Source: Halosimplex aquaticum
Lineage (GTDB): Archaea > Halobacteriota > Halobacteria > Halobacteriales > Haloarculaceae
Assembly (NCBI RefSeq): GCF_028747785.1
Contig: NZ_CP118158.1
Location: forward strand, 3,224,001 to 3,288,000
Reading direction: 5' to 3'
DNA length: 64,000 nt
The position numbers and the translations under genes were made by a program. Shown here in pieces: positions 6,255-36,349 of the stretch. Every line of letters starts with the position of its first letter. The stretch's first letter is position 1. The notes below the pieces were generated by a model. It saw only the letters and a program-made list of their open reading frames with translations. It ran no database searches and was not told the origin of the DNA.

Positions 6255-8405
6255 TCAATCGTCGGCGCGGACGGGCGCGTCGGCGGTCGCGGCCGTTTCG
6301 TCAGCCGGCGCGACGAGCCTGACGGCGCATTGCTTGAAGTTCGGCTCCTTCGACTGGGGATCCAGCGCATCGATAGTCAGCCGGTTCGTCGCCGGGTGGT
6401 GGATGGGGAGCCAGACGAGGCCCTCCGGAACGGCGGCGTCCGGGTCGACGGACGCGCGGACTGCGTCCCGGCGCGACTCGACGACGACCTCGCCGTCCCT
6501 GATCGCGTCGCTCTCGGCGACCGTCTCGGGGTTGATCCGGGCGACGACCGGGTCGAGGTCGTCCACGTCACGCGAGCGAACGCCCGTGTTGTAGGCGTCG
6601 GACTCACGGGCGGTCGTCAGCGTGAGCGGGTACTCGTCGTCGACGGGTTCGGGGAGCCCCTCCTGCCGGGCGGTCGAGAATCCCGCCAGCCCGCTCGCGG
6701 TCGGGAACGACCACGACTCCTCGCCGGTCTCGTCGGGGGCCGGCTCGTCCTCGTCGCGCGGGACGTAGCCGCGGTTGCCGTCGTCGCCGTCGTAGTAGCG
6801 ATAGCCTGCGTCGGTCTCGGCGTCCGGCGCCGGCCAGCGGAGCGCCTTGAGGTCCTCCAGGCGGTCGTAGGTGATCCCCGACATGTCCGCGACGGTGCCC
6901 GCGGTGAGGCCCGCGAACTCGTCGAACAGCGCCTCCGGGTCGGGATCGGGGTCGTCGAACAGGTCGGGGAACAGGCGCGCGCCCACCGTCGAGATGATCC
7001 GCAGGTCGCTCCAGACACCGCTCGGCGCCTCGGTCGCCGCGCGCACCCGCGAGACGGTCCGCTCCATGTTCATCGCCGTCCCCTCGGACTCGCCCCACGT
7101 CGCCGCGGGCAGGACCACGTCGGCGAGGTCGGTCGTCTCCGTCCGGAAGGCGTCCTGCGCGACGAGGAAGACGTCTTCGAGGTTCTCTTTCGCGGTGCTC
7201 GCGTCTGGCATGCCCGCGACGGGGTTCGTCGCGACCGTGTAGGCCACCTCCACCTCGTCGCCGAGCGCCTCGGCGATGCCGACCGGTCCGGGACCGGGAT
7301 CCGGCGGCAGACGCTCGACCGGAATGTCCCACTGCTCGGCGACGGTCCGGCGCTCGTCGGGATCGGCGAACGGCCGCTGCCCCGGCCAGGTCCCCTTGCA
7401 CGAGCAGACGCGGGTACCCATCGAGTTGGCCTGACCCGTCAGCGAGAACGGGCCGCTCCCCGGCCGGAGGTTGCCGGTCGCGAGACACAGGTCGATCAGC
7501 GCCCGCGCGATGTCGGTCCCCTGGACGTGCTGGTTGACGCCCATCCCCCAGTAACAGAGGGCGTCGCGCTCGAACGCGTCGGCGAGTCTGTCGACGTCTG
7601 CGGTCGAGACGCCAGCGCGCGCTGCCGCAGACTCGCTGTCGGGCAGGGCGTCCCGCAGGTCGTCGAACCCCTCGGTGGCCTCGGCGACGAACCCCTCGTC
7701 GACCCGGTCGGTCTCGACGATGCGGGCGAGCACCGCCCGCGCGAGCGCCAGGTCCTGGCCGGGATCGGGCGCGACGTGCGCGTCGGCGGCCTCGGCCGTC
7801 TCCGTCTCGACGGGGTCGACCGCGAGCAACTCGACCCCTTCGTCGCTCGCGGCCTGACGGATCCACCGGAACATGACCGGATGGGCCGCGGCCGGGTTCG
7901 CGCCCCAGACGACGTGGGCCTCGGCCTCGGGGATGTCGTCGTAGCTGCACGGGGGCGCGTCGCTGCCGAACGCCTGGTAGTAGGCCGTGACGGCGCTGGC
8001 CATACACAGCGTCGTGTTCGCGTCGTAGTAGCGCGTCCCGAACCCGCCGCGGGCGAGCTTCCCCAGCGCGTAGGCGGCCTCGTTGGTCTGCTGGCCGCTC
8101 CCGAGCACCGCGACCTCGCCAGCCGAGTCGACCGCACCCTGGAACGCCCGAAGCGCCTCCGACAGCGCCACGTCCCAGGTCGTGGAGACGAGTTCGCCGT
8201 CGCGGCGGACCATCGGCCGAGTCAGCCACTCCCCCTGCGGATCGGACGTCTCCCGGACGCCGCGCTGGCAGGCCAGCCCCTGATTGACCGGGTGCGCGGC
8301 GTCCCCGCGTACCACGTCGATGCCGGTCCCGATATCGGCACCGCGCTGGAGGTGCCCGCAGCCGACCGCACACCGCATGCACGTCGTCGGCACCCAGTCG
8401 CTCAT
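6255..8405 (-). CDS. nasA: Assimilatory nitrate reductase catalytic subunit (Mo-bisMGD, 4Fe-4S)
   Basis: It reduces nitrate to nitrite in the cytoplasm. The chosen start (ATG at 8405) gives 716 residues beginning MSDWVPTTCMRCAVGCG. It has a GGTGATC Shine-Dalgarno match six bases upstream, better than the in-frame ATG at 8477. Cys9, Cys12, Cys16 and Cys46 bind the N-terminal 4Fe-4S cluster. The segment NTTLCMASAV carries the cysteine expected to ligate molybdenum, and a C-terminal molydopterin dinucleotide-binding domain (LTLTTARESDAYNTG onward, ending near WLPIHHP) closes the protein. There is no Tat signal, so it is not the periplasmic NapA/NarG type. Size and companions match haloarchaeal NasA. 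Confidence 0.92.
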   Translation of the reverse strand: MSDWVPTTCMRCAVGCGHLQRGADIGTGIDVVRGDAAHPVNQGLACQRGVRETSDPQGEWLTRPMVRRDGELVSTTWDVALSEALRAFQGAVDSAGEVAVLGSGQQTNEAAYALGKLARGGFGTRYYDANTTLCMASAVTAYYQAFGSDAPPCSYDDIPEAEAHVVWGANPAAAHPVMFRWIRQAASDEGVELLAVDPVETETAEAADAHVAPDPGQDLALARAVLARIVETDRVDEGFVAEATEGFDDLRDALPDSESAAARAGVSTADVDRLADAFERDALCYWGMGVNQHVQGTDIARALIDLCLATGNLRPGSGPFSLTGQANSMGTRVCSCKGTWPGQRPFADPDERRTVAEQWDIPVERLPPDPGPGPVGIAEALGDEVEVAYTVATNPVAGMPDASTAKENLEDVFLVAQDAFRTETTDLADVVLPAATWGESEGTAMNMERTVSRVRAATEAPSGVWSDLRIISTVGARLFPDLFDDPDPDPEALFDEFAGLTAGTVADMSGITYDRLEDLKALRWPAPDAETDAGYRYYDGDDGNRGYVPRDEDEPAPDETGEESWSFPTASGLAGFSTARQEGLPEPVDDEYPLTLTTARESDAYNTGVRSRDVDDLDPVVARINPETVAESDAIRDGEVVVESRRDAVRASVDPDAAVPEGLVWLPIHHPATNRLTIDALDPQSKEPNFKQCAVRLVAPADETAATADAPVRADD

Positions 8406-8487
8406 CGCCCGATCACCGCCTGTCGAGCGGTGTTGCTGGATCGTACTGATAATCGCGAACTCTGTAGACGAACGCAAACCATTCTGT

Positions 8488-8540
8488 CGTTTTGTAGCGC
8501 ATATTCAGAACACAAAACGCTATCCCTTGAACAATTAAAA
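8488..8540 (-). promoter_or_regulatory. nasA promoter: TATA-like element and wide inverted repeat
   Basis: The minus strand has a TATA-like TTTTAATTGT (8540-8531), predicting a transcript start near 8510 and a leader of about 100 bases, in keeping with the Shine-Dalgarno used by nasA. Just downstream of the TATA, CGTTTTGT (8488-8495) and ACAAAACG (8512-8519) form an 8-bp inverted repeat with a 16-base spacer spanning the predicted start. Control by nitrogen status is inferred. Confidence 0.45.
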
Positions 8541-8659
8541 CGTGATCCCACACGAGGATTCCGGGTCCGTCAATTCCGATCGGCGGAGCCACCGCTCGGG
8601 CGTCCCGGTCGCTGACGCGGGAGGAACGTCTCTGGGGCGGCAGCGGCCGTTCCAGGTCG

Positions 8660-9415
8660 CTATCCGGGCAGGTAGTCCGCCACCGAGGAGGAGTCGGGCT
8701 CGGGCAGATCGACCTCGACGCCGGTGACGGTTTCGACGGCCGACCCGACCGCGACGCTGAACTCCGCCGGCTCGACGGCGGCCGGCGATTCCGAGAGGGC
8801 GGCCGCCTCGCTCGGCGGGACCACGGCGTCGGCCGCGTCGACGGTCGGCGACTCGGGGTCGCCCCGGTTCGCGACGACTGCGTCCACGCCGGCGTCGACG
8901 TCACCGAGACGGTCGCAGTGGCGCGGGACGGCGTCGACGCCGCGTTCGCTGTCGGGCACGACCAGCGCGACGGCGTCCGCGGCGGTCACCGCGGCGACCG
9001 CCTGGTTGGCGCCGACCGGCGGCACGTCGACGAAGACGGCGTCGTACCGGTCGGCCGCCGCGGACAGCCGCTCGGCGAGCCGCCGGGCGCACTCGCTCGT
9101 CTTCGCCCGCGCCAGCCGCTCGAAGGAGGCCAGCGCCGGCGTGACGGTCACCGTCCCAGGCAGGTCTAGCGACAGCGTCCGCTCGGCCTCCTGCAGCGGC
9201 CGGTCGTCCGTGAGGACGCGCGTCAAGTCCGGGTCGATCCGCTCGGGTACGAGCGCGGCCAGCCCCTGCGTCGTGAACGACGCGTCCACGACGGTCACGT
9301 CGCGTCCGTCCCGCGCCAGCGCCGCCGCGAACTCCGCCGAGAGCCGCGTCGCCCCGGCGCCGCCGACCCCGCTCACCACCGCGTACACCTCACCGCTCCC
9401 CTGCGTTCCGGTCAT
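8660..9415 (-). CDS. ParA/MinD-like protein without Walker A lysines
   Basis: The 251-residue product has the ParA/MinD fold: an N-terminal P-loop region, the switch-like strand VTVVDASFTTQGLAALV (39-55), a second strand with YDAVFVDVPPVGANQAVAA (Walker B-like D-x-P) and VALVVPDSERGVDAV. The P-loop reads SGVGGAGATR (15-24) where ParA-type ATPases have K-G-G-x-G-K-T-T; the signature lysine is Val17 and the catalytic lysine is Ala22. ATP hydrolysis is therefore improbable. A short acidic tail ends in VADYLPG. It may be a regulatory partner of an active MinD paralogue. The neighbours (nasA upstream, HIT gene upstream on the same strand) give no functional hint. Confidence 0.8.
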   Translation of the reverse strand: MTGTQGSGEVYAVVSGVGGAGATRLSAEFAAALARDGRDVTVVDASFTTQGLAALVPERIDPDLTRVLTDDRPLQEAERTLSLDLPGTVTVTPALASFERLARAKTSECARRLAERLSAAADRYDAVFVDVPPVGANQAVAAVTAADAVALVVPDSERGVDAVPRHCDRLGDVDAGVDAVVANRGDPESPTVDAADAVVPPSEAAALSESPAAVEPAEFSVAVGSAVETVTGVEVDLPEPDSSSVADYLPG

Positions 9416-9538
9416 GTACCGCCATTGCCACCTACCCCTTGAAAAAGATACGTGTTGCTCGGCGAACCGTTCGGCGTCGAGTCGCCGTCGCCGAGCCGAC
9501 GCGTTGGCGCGCCGGTCGTCGATGAGGCCGGGAGCGAA

Positions 9539-9970
9539 TCAGTCGCCGGCGTTCTCGGTTATCGACGCGGCGATGTCGTCGAGTTCGTCGTCGTCCAGAT
9601 CCGGGCGCTGGCCGAAGATCGAGTGGATGGGGCCGCCCCCGTCGTCCTCGAACCGCGGGACGACGTGGCCGTGCGCGTGCGGGACCTCCTGGCCGGCCGC
9701 CTCGCCGTTGTTGAACGCGACGGTCGTCCCGTCGGCGTCGACGGCCGACTCGATCGGGTCGACCAGTCGATGCATCACCGCGAACACGTCGCTCGCGAGG
9801 TCGTTCGGCATGTCCTGGACGTGTTCGTGGTGGGATTTCGGGATGACCAGCGTGTGCCCCGGCGCCAGCGGGTTCGCGTCGAGGAAGGCGAACACGTCGT
9901 CGTCCTCGTACACCGTGCGACTGGGGATCTCTCCGGCCACGATCTGACAGAAGATGCAGTCCTCGCTCAT
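9539..9970 (-). CDS. HIT-family nucleotide hydrolase (Hint type)
   Basis: The 143-residue protein carries the histidine-triad motif HAHGHVV at residues 98-104 (His98, His100, His102), preceded by the usual acidic-substrate segment TTVAFNNGEAAGQEVPH. An N-terminal CIFC pair (Cys5, Cys8) is the zinc-binding element of Hint-type members. Family members hydrolyse adenosine 5'-phosphoramidates or related nucleotides in the cytoplasm. The start at 9970 (MSEDCIFC) is preferred over a frame extension to 10000 because homologues begin with this motif. It is transcribed away from the hairpin-rich region at 10.0-10.5 kb. Confidence 0.9.
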   Translation of the reverse strand: MSEDCIFCQIVAGEIPSRTVYEDDDVFAFLDANPLAPGHTLVIPKSHHEHVQDMPNDLASDVFAVMHRLVDPIESAVDADGTTVAFNNGEAAGQEVPHAHGHVVPRFEDDGGGPIHSIFGQRPDLDDDELDDIAASITENAGD

Positions 9971-10020
9971 GTGCGAGAGGTCGGAGCGAGCCCCAATCAA
10001 GCTTAGCCCTCTTTTTCGTC

Positions 10021-10186
10021 GGGGGGTCGCCTGCGGCGACCCCCCGTCTGCTCACGGGCGGCTTCGCCGCCCGTTTGCACGGTCCGAGGGACCGAAGGTC
10101 CCTCGCTAACCAAAAACATAGGTGAAAAAGGCCGCGAGCGCCGTAGGCGCTCGCGGAAGAACCGCGCCTCGCTTCGCTCGGCGCGG
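10021..10186. repeat. Run of five consecutive stem-loops with 3-11-base loops
   Basis: The perfect stems are 10021-10030/10036-10045 (10 bp, loop CTGCG), 10054-10062/10066-10074 (9 bp, loop TTC), 10085-10093/10097-10105 (9 bp, loop GAA), 10132-10142/10146-10156 (11 bp, loop GTA) and 10162-10168/10180-10186 (7 bp). Their stem sequences are unrelated to one another, so this is repeated structure rather than repeated sequence. Confidence 0.75.
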
Positions 10187-10349
10187 ATGCTCAATACAGC
10201 CCAGAGAGTGAACAATCGTGGTGGCGCGCGCTGTCGCGCGCTCTTATGCGCGCGACGAAGCCGCGTGAGGGATGAGCGAACGAGCGCAGCGAGTGAGCGA
10301 ATCGGCTGGGGAGGCGTGAGGCGCGGTGCTGTGCGGTTCCTGGCGGACT

Positions 10350-10456
10350 GAAAGGGCGAGGCGCGCTCGCGTCCAGTTCAGTCGCTTGAGCAGGCCCTAT
10401 CCGAGCGAAGCGAGGATAGGGCCTGCTCAGCGACCGCGAGCGCGCCGAGGGCTTTC
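10350..10456. repeat. Nested inverted-repeat element with GAAAGGG/GGCTTTC edges
   Basis: The outer arms 10350-10371 and 10435-10456 are imperfect reverse complements sharing CGCGAGCGCGCC and ending in GAAAGGG versus GGCTTTC. Inside, 10387-10402 and 10414-10429 form a perfect 16-bp stem (TGAGCAGGCCCTATCC) with an 11-base loop. The element looks like a structured RNA or a small non-autonomous dispersed repeat. I do not recognise a named family. Confidence 0.65.
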
Positions 10457-10603
10457 GTTGGCTGCTGTCGCCTGCGGTCGTCCCGGTTCGACTTCTATTC
10501 GCCACTCCTCCACCAGAAACAACTACTCTGTATGCAATCGATACTGAACGCCGTTCCCCGAGTACCACCCACGCTTAGGTGTGCGCACGCCCATCACCAA
10601 TCC

Positions 10604-10942
10604 ATGCAGGTCGAAGCTCACTCGGCGAACGAGACGGTCGAAGTCGTGGACGGCGTCCACCTCACACAGTTGGCGGTCGGTGAGCGGACGAGCGTCCAGC
10701 ACGTTCACATGGAACCGGGCGCGGTCGTCCCGGAACACAGCCACGAGCACGAGCAGGTCGGGTACATCACCGGCGGCTCGGGCGTGTTCGTCGTCGACGG
10801 CGAGGAGTTCCCCGTCAGCTCCGGCGACTCCTATCACCTCGTAGCGGACGAACCGCACAGTCTGGAGAACACCGGCGACGAACCGCTCGACGGCATCGAC
10901 GTGTTCGCGCCGCCGCGAGCGAACCCCGACTGGCAGGACTGA
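10604..10942 (+). CDS. Single-domain cupin protein
   Basis: The 112-residue product is one cupin barrel. Motif 1 is PGAVVPEHSHEHEQVGYITGG (about 38-58) with His45 and His47 and the E-Q pair as likely metal ligands; motif 2 is around VSSGDSYHLVADEPHSLENT, supplying the last His. Such small cupins bind a metal and serve as isomerases, dioxygenases or small-molecule sensors, and sequence alone does not choose. The ATG at 10604 is preferred over an in-frame ATG at 10532 because a TATA-like GCTTAGGT lies 25-30 bases before it (leaderless mRNA) and the barrel begins just after it. Confidence 0.88.
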   Translation: MQVEAHSANETVEVVDGVHLTQLAVGERTSVQHVHMEPGAVVPEHSHEHEQVGYITGGSGVFVVDGEEFPVSSGDSYHLVADEPHSLENTGDEPLDGIDVFAPPRANPDWQD

Positions 10943-11026
10943 GCGGCCCGGTCTCACGCAGATCCGGACGCGGCGAACGCGTGAGTCCAAAGGTCTAAGC
11001 CCCGTCGTCGCTAACGTCGAGACACT

Positions 11027-11401
11027 ATGAGTACCGAAACCGAGGGCGGCGACGACCTGGAGGAGCGGATTTCGAACTTCCTGCGGCGCAACTTCCCGCA
11101 GATCCAGATGCACGGCGGGTCGGCCGCCATCGAGGAGATCGACCGCGAGGAAGGCTCGGTCACCATCCAGCTCGGCGGCGCGTGTTCGGGCTGTGGCATC
11201 TCCCCGATGACCATCCAGGCCATCAAGACGCGAATGACCAAGGAGATCCCGGAGATCGAGACCGTCAACGCCCGCACCGGCGGCGGCATGGGCGGCAGCG
11301 AAGGCATGATGGGCGCCGACACCGGCCCCTCGATGCCCGGCGAATCCCGCGGCGGCGACATCGGCGGCGACGACGACGAAGGCCCCGAAGCGCCGTTCTG
11401 A
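11027..11401 (+). CDS. NifU C-terminal-domain Fe-S scaffold protein
   Basis: The 124-residue protein is a NifU-like (Nfu) domain: LEERISNFLRRNFPQIQMHGG then VTIQLGGACSGCGISPMTIQ, with the cluster-binding CxxC at Cys53 and Cys56. It transiently assembles or delivers 4Fe-4S clusters in the cytoplasm. The C-terminus (from about residue 86) is a Gly/Met/Asp-rich tail that is probably disordered. A TATA-like TCTAAG at 10994-10999 puts the transcript start at or near the ATG. It is a single gene between the cupin gene and the convergent presenilin-like gene. Confidence 0.92.
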   Translation: MSTETEGGDDLEERISNFLRRNFPQIQMHGGSAAIEEIDREEGSVTIQLGGACSGCGISPMTIQAIKTRMTKEIPEIETVNARTGGGMGGSEGMMGADTGPSMPGESRGGDIGGDDDEGPEAPF

Positions 11402-11490
11402 ACGCCGCCTCCTCGGTCCACTTCTCGTCTTTTCCACCGCGCCAGTCGCGACGCTGTCGGTGGTGTTCGAATTGCCGAAAACGCGGTCGA

Positions 11491-12552
11491 CTATAGCCCC
11501 AGCGCCGTCGTGACGGGGATTCCCGCCGCGACCGCGCCGAGGAGGTACCCGCCGAGGACGCCGGCGTTCAGCGGCGGGAGCCCCGCGTGGGCGCCCTCGA
11601 CTCGGTGGACGAGATAGAGGAGTCCGGCCATCCCGACGAGGCCGCCGACGAGCGCGCCGATCGCTGGCGCGTTGGCGTTCAGCGCGGGGACGACGGTCGG
11701 TGCGTCGAGGAAGTGGCCGGCGCTGACGGCGAGCATCCCCGGGATGAGCGCGTCGCCGAGGCCGAGGAGGGCGATCTCGGCGCGTGCCGGGCTCTCGGCG
11801 GACTGATCTTCGGCGGACGCCGCGCCGGCTCCGCCCTCCTCGTTGTCCTCTCCCTCTTCGCCACCGCCCATCAGGTCGAAGTCGGGGTCGCGCATCGAGA
11901 AGTCGAGCGAGTGCGGGACGACGAAGACGATGGGCGCTTTGAGGTCGCCGAGCCCGGCGGCGAGTTCCTGCATGTGCCCGGAGACGTAGACGGCGTAGGC
12001 GTCGTAGCCCGCCCAGACGACCAGGAGCACGACCACCGGGAACGGACCGAACCCGAGTCCGAGCATCGGGATCGCCGCCGCGCCGAAGATCACGGCGGCG
12101 ACGTCGTTGACGTACCACTCGGGGTAGCCCCAGAGGACGACGAACGTGACTGCGGCCACGGCGATGGAGGCGGGACTCGTCGGTAGCCCCATCAGCACGC
12201 TCCCGCTCGCCGCGATCTCTCCGATCCCCGTCAGGGCGACGAACGCCACGGAGGTGAGCGTGCTCGCGGACCCGAGGAGGAAGACGCGGACGAGCGCCTC
12301 GCCGTACCCGTAGCGGAACGCGGCGACCATGACACCCGTCGCGACCAGCAACAGTACGGCGAAGACGCCCACGTTCCCGACGTTCCCGGGATTCTGGAAC
12401 ATGGCCAGCCCCATCTCGGCCACCTCGTCCGTCATCGAGAGCCCGAGGACGATCGTGGCGGTGTAGAGCGCGACGATCCCGACGTAGGCGTACGTCCCCG
12501 AGGGGATCGCCGGCGTCTCGTCGCGGGACTCGGCGGCCGCGTGGTCGCTCAT
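11491..12552 (-). CDS. Presenilin-like intramembrane aspartyl protease
   Basis: The 353-residue membrane protein has eight to nine hydrophobic helices. The two catalytic aspartates are in WAGYDAYAVY (YD motif) and LLGLGDALIPGM (GxGD motif). The C-terminal region has GLPPLNAGVLGG where presenilins have PAL, here PPL. Between the catalytic helices lies a long acidic Gly/Glu loop (about residues 205-240, MGGGEEGEDNEE), as in archaeal presenilin homologues where it is cytosolic. It would cleave transmembrane segments within the bilayer. I start it at MSDHAAAES (12552); in-frame upstream codons look non-coding. It converges with the NifU-like gene. Confidence 0.9.
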   Translation of the reverse strand: MSDHAAAESRDETPAIPSGTYAYVGIVALYTATIVLGLSMTDEVAEMGLAMFQNPGNVGNVGVFAVLLLVATGVMVAAFRYGYGEALVRVFLLGSASTLTSVAFVALTGIGEIAASGSVLMGLPTSPASIAVAAVTFVVLWGYPEWYVNDVAAVIFGAAAIPMLGLGFGPFPVVVLLVVWAGYDAYAVYVSGHMQELAAGLGDLKAPIVFVVPHSLDFSMRDPDFDLMGGGEEGEDNEEGGAGAASAEDQSAESPARAEIALLGLGDALIPGMLAVSAGHFLDAPTVVPALNANAPAIGALVGGLVGMAGLLYLVHRVEGAHAGLPPLNAGVLGGYLLGAVAAGIPVTTALGL

Positions 12553-12790
12553 CGGTCGGCCCCCCGGTGGCGGTCGGTCGTCGGCTTCCCCTGCGACGGC
12601 ACCCGGTGCATGTTCGGGTCGGACGGCCACCGCGTGCAAATACCTCTCGGACTCCGGCCAGGTGCTGACGGTCGCGGAGACGTTGCTTCTACGTACGGCA
12701 CAGCACCGAACTGGAACTCCGACACAGTGTGAAAGCCCTCGCGCCGCGGCCCCGGGGATCGCTGCGTGCCTCGAACGAGGAATCACGGAC

Positions 12791-12797
12791 TTTAATT
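12791..12797 (+). promoter_or_regulatory. TATA box for the sulfatase-fold gene
   Basis: TTTAATT at 12791-12797 lies about 27 bases before the ATG at 12821, giving a leaderless or nearly leaderless transcript. Confidence 0.55.
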
Positions 12798-12820
12798 CCG
12801 TGCGTGGCGGTTCCCTTTGC

Positions 12821-14374
12821 ATGAGCGAGACAGACGGTCCGGGGAACGTCCTCTTCGTCGTCACGGACACGGTCCGGAAGAGCCACCTCTCCGTGTACGG
12901 CTACGACCGGCCGACGACGCCGAACCTGGAAGACTTCGCCGACGACGCGCGGGTCTTCGAGCACGCCGTCGCGCCGGCGCCCTGGACCCTCCCCGTCCAC
13001 GCCTCGCTGTTCACGGGGCTGTACCCCACCCAGCACGGGGCCACCCAGGAGAACCCCTATCTGGAGGACGCGACCACGCTCGCGGAATCACTCAACGCGG
13101 CCGGCTACGCCACCGCCTGTTACTCCTCGAACGCCTGGATCACGCCCTACACCAACCTGACGGACGGCTTCGACGACCAGGACAACTTCTTCCAGGTCAT
13201 GCCGGGCGAGTTCCTCTCGGGCCCGCTGTCGAAGGCCTGGAAGACGATGAACGACAACGACGCGCTGCGGCGGGTCGCCGACAAACTCGTCGAACTCGGC
13301 AACACCGCCCACGAGTACTTCGCCGAGAGCGGCGGCGGCGACACGAAGACGCCCGAGATCGTCGACCGCGTCCAGGAGTTCGTCACCGACGCCGAGCGAG
13401 CGGGCGACGAGTGGTTCACGTTCATCAACCTGATGGACGCCCACCTGCCGTACCACCCGCCCGACGAGTTCGCCGAGGAGTTCGCCCCCGGCGTCGACTC
13501 GACCGAGGTCTGCCAGAACTCAAAGGAGTACAACTCCGGCGCCCGCGACATCGACCACGACGAGTGGGAGGCAATCGAGGGTCTCTACGACGCCGAGATC
13601 GCCCACATCGACCACCACCTCGGCCGCCTGTTCGACTGGCTGCGCGACACGGGCCGCTGGGAGGACACCCTCGTCGTCGTCTGCGCCGACCACGGCGAGC
13701 TGTTCGGCGAACACGGCCTCTACGGTCACGAGTTCTGCATCTACGACCCCCTCGTCAACGTGCCGCTCATGGTCAAACATCCCGAACTCGACGCCGAGCG
13801 CGACGACGAGACGCAGGTCGAACTGCAGGACCTGTACCACACGGTCCTCGACCACGCCGGCGTCTCGGTCGCGGCGGGCGGCGAACCGTTCGACGCCGCG
13901 CGGTCGCTCCTGCGCGCTGACTACCGTGAGTTCGCCGGCGTCGACGCGCCGCGCGGCGCCGAGTCGCGCTTTTCGGCCCACGACGACGGCGAACTGGACG
14001 ACTACGCGTTCGTCGACTACCACCGCCCCGTCGTCGAACTGAACCAGCTGGAGAGCAAGGCCGAGGCGGCGGGGATCGAACTCGATACGAACTCCCGCTT
14101 CTACTCGCGGATGCGCGCCGCGCGACGGACCGACGGGAAGTACATCCGCAACGAGCGCATCCCGGACGAGGCCTACCGGATCGACACCGACCCCGAGGAA
14201 CTGGAGGACGTGGTCGACGCCGACGACGAGGTGATCGCCGCGGCCGAGGAAGCGCTGGTCACCTTCGAGTCGGAGATGGACGGCGAGTGGGCGGACGTGA
14301 CCGACGAGGACGTCCTCGACGACATGGGCGACGAGGCGAAAGACCGCCTGTCGGACCTGGGGTACATCGAGTAA
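12821..14374 (+). CDS. Sulfatase/alkaline-phosphatase superfamily enzyme with Thr at the nucleophile position
   Basis: The 517-residue protein begins with the superfamily metal-binding strand NVLFVVTDTVRKSHLSVYG (9-27) and shows PWTLPVHASLFTGLYPTQHG (55-74). It aligns with the formylglycine motif C/S-x-P-x-R, but the nucleophile is Thr56 and the Arg is His60. The second metal site is VVCADHGELFGEHG. A Thr nucleophile is used by phosphoglycerol and phosphoethanolamine transferases, so phospho- or sulfo-group transfer or hydrolysis are both possible. No signal peptide or membrane helix is present, so it is likely cytoplasmic. A GTG start for a flippase-like protein follows after two bases, suggesting joint work on a lipid-linked glycan. 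Confidence 0.85.
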   Translation: MSETDGPGNVLFVVTDTVRKSHLSVYGYDRPTTPNLEDFADDARVFEHAVAPAPWTLPVHASLFTGLYPTQHGATQENPYLEDATTLAESLNAAGYATACYSSNAWITPYTNLTDGFDDQDNFFQVMPGEFLSGPLSKAWKTMNDNDALRRVADKLVELGNTAHEYFAESGGGDTKTPEIVDRVQEFVTDAERAGDEWFTFINLMDAHLPYHPPDEFAEEFAPGVDSTEVCQNSKEYNSGARDIDHDEWEAIEGLYDAEIAHIDHHLGRLFDWLRDTGRWEDTLVVVCADHGELFGEHGLYGHEFCIYDPLVNVPLMVKHPELDAERDDETQVELQDLYHTVLDHAGVSVAAGGEPFDAARSLLRADYREFAGVDAPRGAESRFSAHDDGELDDYAFVDYHRPVVELNQLESKAEAAGIELDTNSRFYSRMRAARRTDGKYIRNERIPDEAYRIDTDPEELEDVVDADDEVIAAAEEALVTFESEMDGEWADVTDEDVLDDMGDEAKDRLSDLGYIE

Positions 14375-35870: not shown

Positions 35871-36349
35871 GGTGTGGTCGTCGTCGGGGTTCGTGGTGTA
35901 CGTTGTGGTCGGCGAGTGAGAGGCGGCGAATCCGAATGTATCCGTCCCGGTAGAGAGCGAACAGCGAGCGACCTGATCGTAGCGGAACTCGTGACCGCAA
36001 ACAGGGTGAAAGCCCCCGCTCGCTCCGGTCTCGCGACTCGCTGCGCGCTTCGGTCGCTCCGCTCCCGACAGTGCTTACTTCGTCGTGCTTCCCGGAGCGA
36101 GCGGCCCCCTTTCATTCCCACCCGCATAGACTGTTGGGAAGCCGATACGGGTGGGAATGAAAGGGGCGACCTGTTCGACGAAGCCCGGCGACGTAAGCAC
36201 GCAAACGAAGTGAGCGCGCGCAGCGAGCCGCGCGAGTCGAACAGGTCGGGGCTTTCACGCTGTTCTCGGCACCAGTCGAGTCCGCGGTCGCGGTCCAGTC
36301 GGCGGTCGTGGTAGCGGTGTCGCCACCGGCACAACCACCGGAACTCACG
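35871..36349. other. 479-bp gap containing a multi-stem inverted-repeat element
   Basis: There is no gene here. The first 130 bases include the upstream region of the small helical-protein gene. From 36000 to 36264 the DNA forms a nested set of long stems, described separately. From 36265 to 36349 nothing notable is seen beyond the 3' side of the MFS gene. Confidence 0.7.
36000..36264. repeat. 265-bp four-stem structured element with inverted arms
   Basis: Closing stem P1: 36000-36016 with 36248-36264 (17 bp, one mismatch; edges AACAGGGTGAAAGCCCC). P2: 36016-36028 with 36092-36104 (13 bp). P3: 36106-36124 with 36148-36166 (19 bp, perfect). P4: 36167-36179 with 36236-36248 (13 bp). P2, P3 and P4 abut with at most one or two unpaired bases, giving a four-way junction. 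The P2 and P4 arms contain inverted related loop sequences: CTCGCTGCGCGC (36038-36049) versus 36216-36227, and GTGCTTAC (36071-36078) versus 36193-36200. Confidence 0.75.

What the first reader, a model, noticed from the sequence alone, without database searches (positions are those of the whole stretch)
10350..10456. Nested inverted-repeat element with 16-bp core hairpin
Outer arms of about 22 bp (GAAAGGG...GGCTTTC edges) enclose a perfect 16-bp hairpin around TGAGCAGGCCCTATCC. The order 'outer imperfect stem, inner perfect stem' and the GAAAG/CTTTC edges recall the element at 36.0-36.3 kb, though the sequences differ.
Basis: seen in the sequence. Interest (0 to 1): 0.5.

Follow-up and report, generated by a model that had tools for sequence, protein, structure and literature searches.

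The report
Haloarchaeal structured mobile repeat
The hairpin is one of at least thirty copies, in this salt-loving archaeon's genome, of a folded non-coding DNA repeat that occurs in many haloarchaea; relatives of it have jumped between genome sites, and gene order often differs between species at its copies.

Summary
The hairpin is real and beyond chance (z -6.4, 0 of 200 shuffles). It is only the 3' module ("R") of a larger element, about 10223-10490; the 5' module ("L") has its own hairpins and conserved boxes. The genome is Halosimplex (inferred). A covariance model finds 34 copies there (lower bound) and hits in 23 of 57 family genomes, patchily. The L boxes occur in 72 of 242 genomes of the class, reversed-pattern control 0. 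Base pairs covary. In a related genus, R pairs lie in elements with terminal inverted repeats and 8-bp target duplications (22 of 25 match at 7/8 or better), and two of two elements tested have empty orthologous sites: they transposed. Halosimplex copies show no target duplication; some are inherited in place, but more often species share only one flank, as recombination between copies predicts. The 36-kb element is a true relative. No Rfam match. Best reading: an old, structure-conserved, non-autonomous mobile repeat family. What the fold does, and whether it acts as RNA or single-stranded DNA, is open.

The parts
10223..10258 (+). L module: conserved 5' start GGCGCGCGCTG and hairpin P1
   Evidence: Start motif found upstream of 58 of 63 cores examined (the other 5 printed no match); printed flanks
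10267..10275 (+). L module: conserved box GAGGGATGA
   Evidence: box pair with GAATCGG..GGGGAGG in 72 of 242 class genomes (that pattern begins CGAGGG, while this copy reads TGAGGG, so it is not itself counted there)
10271..10303 (+). L module: hairpin P2 (GAT/ATC, then two-base Watson-Crick steps alternating with tandem G.A/A.G steps)
   Evidence: Read from the sequence; covariation of P2 in 41 distinct 49-nt relatives
10299..10314 (+). L module: conserved box GAATCGGCTGGGGAGG
10339..10349 (+). Conserved foot CCTGGCGGACT just 5' of the R hairpin
10349..10456 (+). R module (the reported hairpin): stem GAAAG/CTTTC, G-rich internal loop GGCGA/GAGGG, outer stem, 9-nt bulge, inner stem, GCGAAGC loop
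   Evidence: R1 match 115.3 bits
10457..10490 (+). Semi-conserved tail (nnCGCTTGCTGTC..CTGCGGTC type); right edge uncertain
36008..36114 (-). Left arm of a related R pair (second R type, GTAAGCAC motif)
   Evidence: R1 match E 0.0084; 69% identical to the right arm over 84 aligned columns and similar to named R domains
36158..36256 (+). Right arm of the same related R pair
   Evidence: R1 match E 0.0078; 80% identical over 98 nt to the R domain of L159, which follows an L domain

Best explanation
It is one copy of an old family of short non-coding transposable repeats, spread over the class Halobacteria, whose folded single strand is conserved. Two modules, L (5') and R (3', the reported hairpin), occur as L-R (here), as outward-facing R pairs, or as inward-facing L pairs. 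SHOWN: dispersal, covariation, and mobility of R-pair elements in a related genus (terminal inverted repeats, 8-bp target duplications, empty sites). INFERRED: those elements are moved in trans by a transposase that acts on the terminal repeats, and L and R are structured end modules that travel with them. In Halosimplex the copies are mostly resident: some are inherited at the same site, and recombination or gene conversion between copies exchanges flanks and sequence variants. NOT KNOWN: what the fold does (candidates: stopping read-through transcription at element ends, a protein-binding RNA, a folded single-stranded DNA intermediate) and how the L-R copies themselves moved.
For: 34 copies in the own genome (150 of 12706 candidates scored); hits in 23 of 57 family genomes, patchy even inside a genus (G045 35 copies, G010/G058/G070 none). 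Covariation: 13 of 37 pairs in A1 (0 of 500 shuffles), 23 of 37 in A2, 29 of 37 in A3. L boxes in 72 of 242 class genomes, control 0. Genus g37: terminal repeats with zero control hits, 8-bp duplications in 22 of 25 at 7/8 or better, empty sites for 2 of 2 elements tested. Halosimplex: 10 locus pairs with both flanks shared, 24 with one flank on the same side and strand only; presence/absence at L038.
Against: No target duplication and no terminal inverted repeat was found for the Halosimplex copies (8-mers 20 observed, 19.2 in shuffles). No transposase was identified beside the lone terminal repeats of g37. At ten orthologous pairs the fold is not clearly kept in place: 12 compensated pair changes, 6 one-sided changes that keep pairing, 26 where a standard pair is missing in one of the two. 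10 of 44 flank pairs are cross-side or inverted, contrary to pure exchange. At L028 the site difference is not a simple insertion.
Confidence: 0.72

Rival explanations
1. It is a multi-copy structured RNA gene or regulatory RNA of the host (L-R RNA of about 270 nt), kept for a host function; mobility is incidental.
For: Near-invariant boxes between covarying stems over a whole class; ten Halosimplex locus pairs keep a copy at the same site; more G-U than A-C mismatches on the written strand (62 to 24 and 81 to 29), as expected if that strand folds.
Against: Patchy presence, 35 copies against none within one genus; target duplications and empty sites in g37; orientation to neighbouring genes about random; in-place compensation not supported. 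The G-U count is biased because the alignments were fitted to a model that accepts G-U. Expression was not tested.
Confidence: 0.17
2. It is a REP- or PATE-like element moved as single-stranded DNA by a Y1 (IS200/IS605, RAYT) transposase, the hairpins being the recognition sites.
For: Conserved hairpins near element ends, inverted pairs, no target duplication in Halosimplex.
Against: PF01797 has no match in G000, G045 and G056, which hold many copies, and 2, 5 and 4 matches in G010, G058 and G070, which hold none by the model; g37 elements have 8-bp duplications, which Y1 transposition does not make (recalled). An unknown or lost HUH enzyme, or TnpB, was not tested.
Confidence: 0.08
3. It is an ordinary GC-rich terminator or a by-product of a hairpin-rich genome, with no family.
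For: The neighbourhood is full of short GC-rich hairpins.
Against: Conserved boxes over about 270 nt, zero control hits in 242 genomes, covariation, no run of T after the hairpin.
Confidence: 0.02

Closest known systems
Small mobile repeats, SMR-A (HqIRS42, HqIRS43, HqIRS55) of Haloquadratum walsbyi (PMC3119063, passages)
   Same: About 110 bp with prominent terminal inverted repeats, up to 54 copies per genome, no target duplication, mode of movement unknown; the R module here is 102-123 bp in most copies, palindromic, tens of copies, no duplication in Halosimplex
   Different: Their sequences could not be seen, so homology is untested. SMR-A mainly enters PATEs and IS605-type transposons; here an L module precedes R, and g37 relatives do make 8-bp duplications
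MITEs
   Same: g37 relatives: short, non-coding, terminal inverted repeats, 8-bp target duplications, empty sites
   Different: Internal structured modules conserved across genera; no partner transposase identified; the window copy has no detected terminal repeat or duplication
REP/BIME elements with RAYT (Y1) transposases
   Same: Dispersed hairpins, mostly between genes, inverted pairs
   Different: Larger, two distinct modules; Y1 genes do not track the copies
PATEs and IS605-type elements of haloarchaea (PMC3119063, passages)
   Same: Near-terminal palindromes, no target duplication in Halosimplex copies
   Different: No Y1 gene in G000; g37 relatives have terminal repeats and duplications

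Membership tests
MITE | Terminal inverted repeats | tested here: inconclusive
   Met in g37 relatives (54 and 85 hits for GTGTTCAGATAAG at up to 1 mismatch in G060 and G072, control 0); no hit for that repeat in G000, and other ends were not found for the window copy
MITE | Target site duplication | tested here: not met
   For Halosimplex copies, the window copy included among 116 loci: no excess over shuffles. In g37 relatives it is met: 22 of 25 at 7/8 or better. So the window copy is not filed as a MITE; its g37 relatives behave as MITEs
MITE | Partner transposase with matching ends | tested here: inconclusive
   Five stretches with lone terminal repeats fetched; ORFs of three were listed and I recognised no transposase; no family search was run on them
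REP/RAYT | Cognate Y1 transposase in genomes with copies | tested here: not met
   PF01797: 0 in G000, G045, G056 with many copies; 2, 5, 4 in G010, G058, G070 with none; also present in G002, G004, G060, G072, G013, G008
PATE / IS605-derived element | Near-terminal palindromes matching an IS605-type element, no target duplication | tested here: inconclusive
   Palindromes and no duplication in Halosimplex, but no Y1 gene in G000; tnpB and ISNph ends were not compared
SMR (Haloquadratum) | About 110 bp, terminal inverted repeats, no target duplication | tested here: met
   R module in Halosimplex: 102-123 bp in most copies, GAAAG/CTTTC ends, no duplication signal
SMR (Haloquadratum) | Sequence homology to HqIRS42/43/55 | not testable with these tools
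   Sequences are in a supplement that could not be read
Rfam RNA family | Match to a curated covariance model | tested here: not met
   Window 8000-13000, E up to 1: no match among 4227 families
Structured single-strand element | Compensatory base-pair changes above shuffle and slid controls | tested here: met
   A1, not fitted to the model: 13 of 37 pairs, 0 of 500 shuffles; further pair types 3 of 500. A2 and A3, fitted to the model: 23 and 29 of 37 pairs, 0 of 500

The most novel reading that the evidence does not exclude
An unnamed folded nucleic-acid family of the class Halobacteria whose L module is a hairpin built from two-base-pair steps alternating with tandem sheared G.A pairs between invariant boxes. 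It serves both as the recognised end of a mobile element and as a structure that the host reads as RNA or DNA, and it gives haloarchaeal chromosomes dispersed sites at which they recombine.
Probability: 0.35. Interest if true: 0.78.

Novelty: new variant of a known kind. Interest (0 to 1): 0.62.

Why it matters
About 30% of the sampled haloarchaeal genomes (72 of 242) carry the L box pair, yet no Rfam family matched and eight searches of open-licence papers turned up no description of it. It is a testable case of a non-coding mobile element whose fold, and not only its ends, is conserved across a class, and a candidate cause of gene-order change among Halosimplex species.

Tried and rejected
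Y1/RAYT transposase as the driver: weakened by presence and absence. Target duplications in Halosimplex copies: none. Autonomous partner beside lone terminal repeats in g37: not found; ORFs of three of the five fetched stretches were read by eye, without a family search. Fold kept in place at ten orthologous pairs: not supported; 12 compensated changes, 6 one-sided, 26 with a missing standard pair in one copy, and the differences look like exchanged variants (the alignment was forced to A1 columns). Simple insertion at L028: G005 matches through the element; in G001, G002, G004, G006 and G007 the flanks are collinear with about 630-650 bp between them, no element match being listed there (the list is cut); in G003 the flanks are on different contigs. 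Phage records: no match. Strict 3'-UTR element: orientation about random (++9, +-9, --7, -+7, two without a neighbour call); by my crude gene finder 25 of 34 copies have two called neighbours that do not overlap the element, 7 are overlapped by a call, 2 lack a call. Hammerhead-like reading of GATGA..GAATC and crRNA-handle reading of the R foot: considered by eye only, dropped.

Papers: PMC3119063, PMC12306157 and PMC10969869 were seen as passages; all others only as search listings. 'Not described' rests on those eight searches of open-licence papers; subscription papers and the Haloquadratum supplement were not seen.

Rows left out: L115 (single R with other ends) and L134 (same site as L089) were not counted; the 25 elements are about half of the terminal-repeat pairs listed. 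7 of 123 loci without the start motif or with short flanks were left out. One search's 34 one-flank pairs were re-sorted by orientation. One of the 123 loci (L006) is from genus g17, not Halosimplex.

Full report
CHECK. The two nested inverted repeats are at the stated places. The stretch folds far better than shuffles as RNA (z -6.42, 0 of 200) and as DNA (z -6.77, 0 of 200). The larger stretch 10221-10490 also does (z -5.09, 0 of 200). It lies between a HIT-like gene on the minus strand and a small cupin-like gene on the plus strand (gene names by eye).

WHERE IT IS. The window is G000:C1:3224001-3288000 of a 5.16-Mb genome. Two congeners match named Halosimplex contigs by length (5199031 bases, H. 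pelagicum R2; 205920 bases, H. carlsbadense 2-9-1), so the genus is Halosimplex by inference.

A FAMILY. DNA 10340-10466 matches 25 places in its own genome and 17 of 40 genomes searched, the own one included (at most 21 first-look candidates scored per genome). Aligning 23 copies showed near-invariant segments and variable loops; 21 copies gave alignment A1. In A1, 13 of 37 pairs have changes on both sides (shuffles 4.6, 0 of 500 as high) and 97.4% of cells pair (shuffles 92.2, 0 of 500); further pair types are reached by 3 of 500. Model R1 found 34 copies in G000 at E <= 0.001, with 150 of 12706 candidates scored, so this is a lower bound. In 57 genomes of the family 23 have hits at E <= 1e-4, 66 candidates scored in each: 31 to 65 in the five Halosimplex genomes sampled, 35 in G045 but none in G010, G058 and G070 of the same genus. 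With 100 matches, nearly all Halosimplex, 23 of 37 pairs covary; with 60 distinct matches from other genera, 29 of 37. These two alignments are fitted to the model, which favours the structure; A1 is not.

ANATOMY. Printing the flanks of the 34 own copies (the output was cut in the middle) showed that the reported hairpin (R) follows a second conserved domain (L): GGCGCGCGCTG and hairpin P1, box GAGGGATGA, hairpin P2, box GAATCGGYTGGGGAGG. P2 is built of two-base Watson-Crick steps alternating with tandem G.A/A.G steps. In 41 distinct 49-nt relatives the outer GAT/ATC is invariant, the inner positions pair in 32 to 41 of 41 rows with several pair types each, and each of the six G.A positions is kept in 32 to 41 rows; part of the exceptions belong to a second register. 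The L box pair occurs in at least 118 stretches of named genomes (Halosimplex, Natrinema, Haladaptatus, Halorussus, Natronococcus, Halococcus and others; the scan stopped at its limit) and in 72 of 242 genomes of the class, 31 of 73 genera, with no hit for the reversed pattern. Of 84 L motifs in the named loci, 29 are followed within 160 nt by an R foot, so L also occurs without R. Both modules occur as inverted pairs: L facing in (L162, L165, L201), R facing out (G045 and others). The element at 36.0-36.3 kb is such an R pair of a second type: its right arm is 80% identical over 98 nt to the R domain of Salinibaculum locus L159.

MOBILITY. In genus g37 the R pairs lie between terminal repeats GTGTTCAGATAAG, found 54 and 85 times in G060 and G072 at up to one mismatch, control 0. 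Of 25 elements read, 18 have an exact 8-bp duplication directly outside the GGTA-type ends, 4 match 7 of 8, and 3 match 6, 5 and 2; L089 and L090 are one shared site, so 24 are independent. Two elements were tested for empty sites. L103 is absent from G072 (flanks abut with 6 bases overlap) and from G047. L110 is absent from G060. At the site shared by L089 and L090 the element is inverted relative to its flanks. So elements carrying this hairpin have transposed.

HALOSIMPLEX. In 116 loci no excess of short repeats links left and right flanks (8-mers 20 against 19.2 in shuffles). Ten locus pairs from different genomes have both flanks orthologous, hence inherited copies. More often one flank only is shared: of 44 pairs, 10 share both, 24 share one flank on the same side and strand only, one shares one flank plus a cross match, and 9 are cross-side or inverted only. 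Exchange between copies preserves side and strand; independent insertion beside the same gene would not. Flank alignments next to the element broke 4 times in 36.9 kb, against 21 one-sided and 8 two-sided junctions at the element. This control is imperfect: flanks are mostly coding, pairs share loci, and intergenic sequence diverges. At the window site, of 8 Halosimplex genomes, G000, G003 and G004 carry a copy beside HIT, G006 a short remnant (25 nt at 92%, E 1.7e-5), and the cupin neighbour was found in the fetched stretch only in G000 and in G005, which lacks the element; the G001 contig ends after about 230 nt. In G003 the cupin-side flank lies beside another copy (L295). G001 has the gene pair around copy L038 with 99 nt between the two alignments and no element; in the other six congeners the right-hand gene lies elsewhere.

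FUNCTION. Not established. Strand-skewed mismatches (G-U 62 to A-C 24; 81 to 29) suggest that the written strand folds, but the model accepts G-U. In-place compensation at orthologous sites was not supported. The placement of L and R at element ends fits insulation against transcription or a recognition role; this is inference.

KNOWN THINGS. No Rfam family matches window 8000-13000 at E up to 1. Y1 transposases do not track the copies. Ten plasmid records (Halorussus, Haloarcula, Halobaculum, Natronococcus, Haladaptatus) hold partial matches; phage records none. The nearest described elements are the SMR-A repeats of Haloquadratum (PMC3119063, passages), whose sequences I could not see. A survey of REP sequences in bacteria and archaea (PMC12306157) has no word beginning with 'halo' in its main text. 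An IS family with 8-bp duplications, such as ISH6 or the ISH4 group, may be the partner; that is recalled, not tested.

Noticed in passing
window 10005-10215; L010, L011, L014, L016 upstream of HIT: A second hairpin-rich unit (GGTGAAAAAGGC between hairpins, AAAAACATGGGTG type) lies between HIT and the element and recurs beside HIT in at least four congeners and upstream of several other copies; it may be another repeat family.
   Followed up: partly
L122, L127, L136, L033 downstream of the R core: Tandem tail units (CTAGCGAGCG..GAGGGCTTTC plus about 25-30 variable nt) repeat the 3' strand of the R stem one to three times; they could pair with the R 5' strand in its place.
   Followed up: no
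L089 and L090, 1312-1600: At one orthologous site the element is inverted between G060 and G072 while the flanks stay collinear.
   Followed up: partly
L034, L037, L039, L040 inside or beside the R core: Extra mini-hairpins of the form (two bases, GA)n loop (GA, two bases)n are inserted in loops of the fold; the same motif is common in neighbouring intergenic DNA.
   Followed up: no
L015 (G006) about 1270-1294; L040 (G000): A decayed 3' remnant lies between HIT and a hemC-like gene (name by eye) in G006, while in G000 the same downstream gene lies beside another copy (L040), as exchange between copies would leave it.
   Followed up: partly
G045 against G010, G058, G070: Within one genus, one species holds 35 R copies and three hold none by the model, a natural system for studying invasion.
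   Followed up: no
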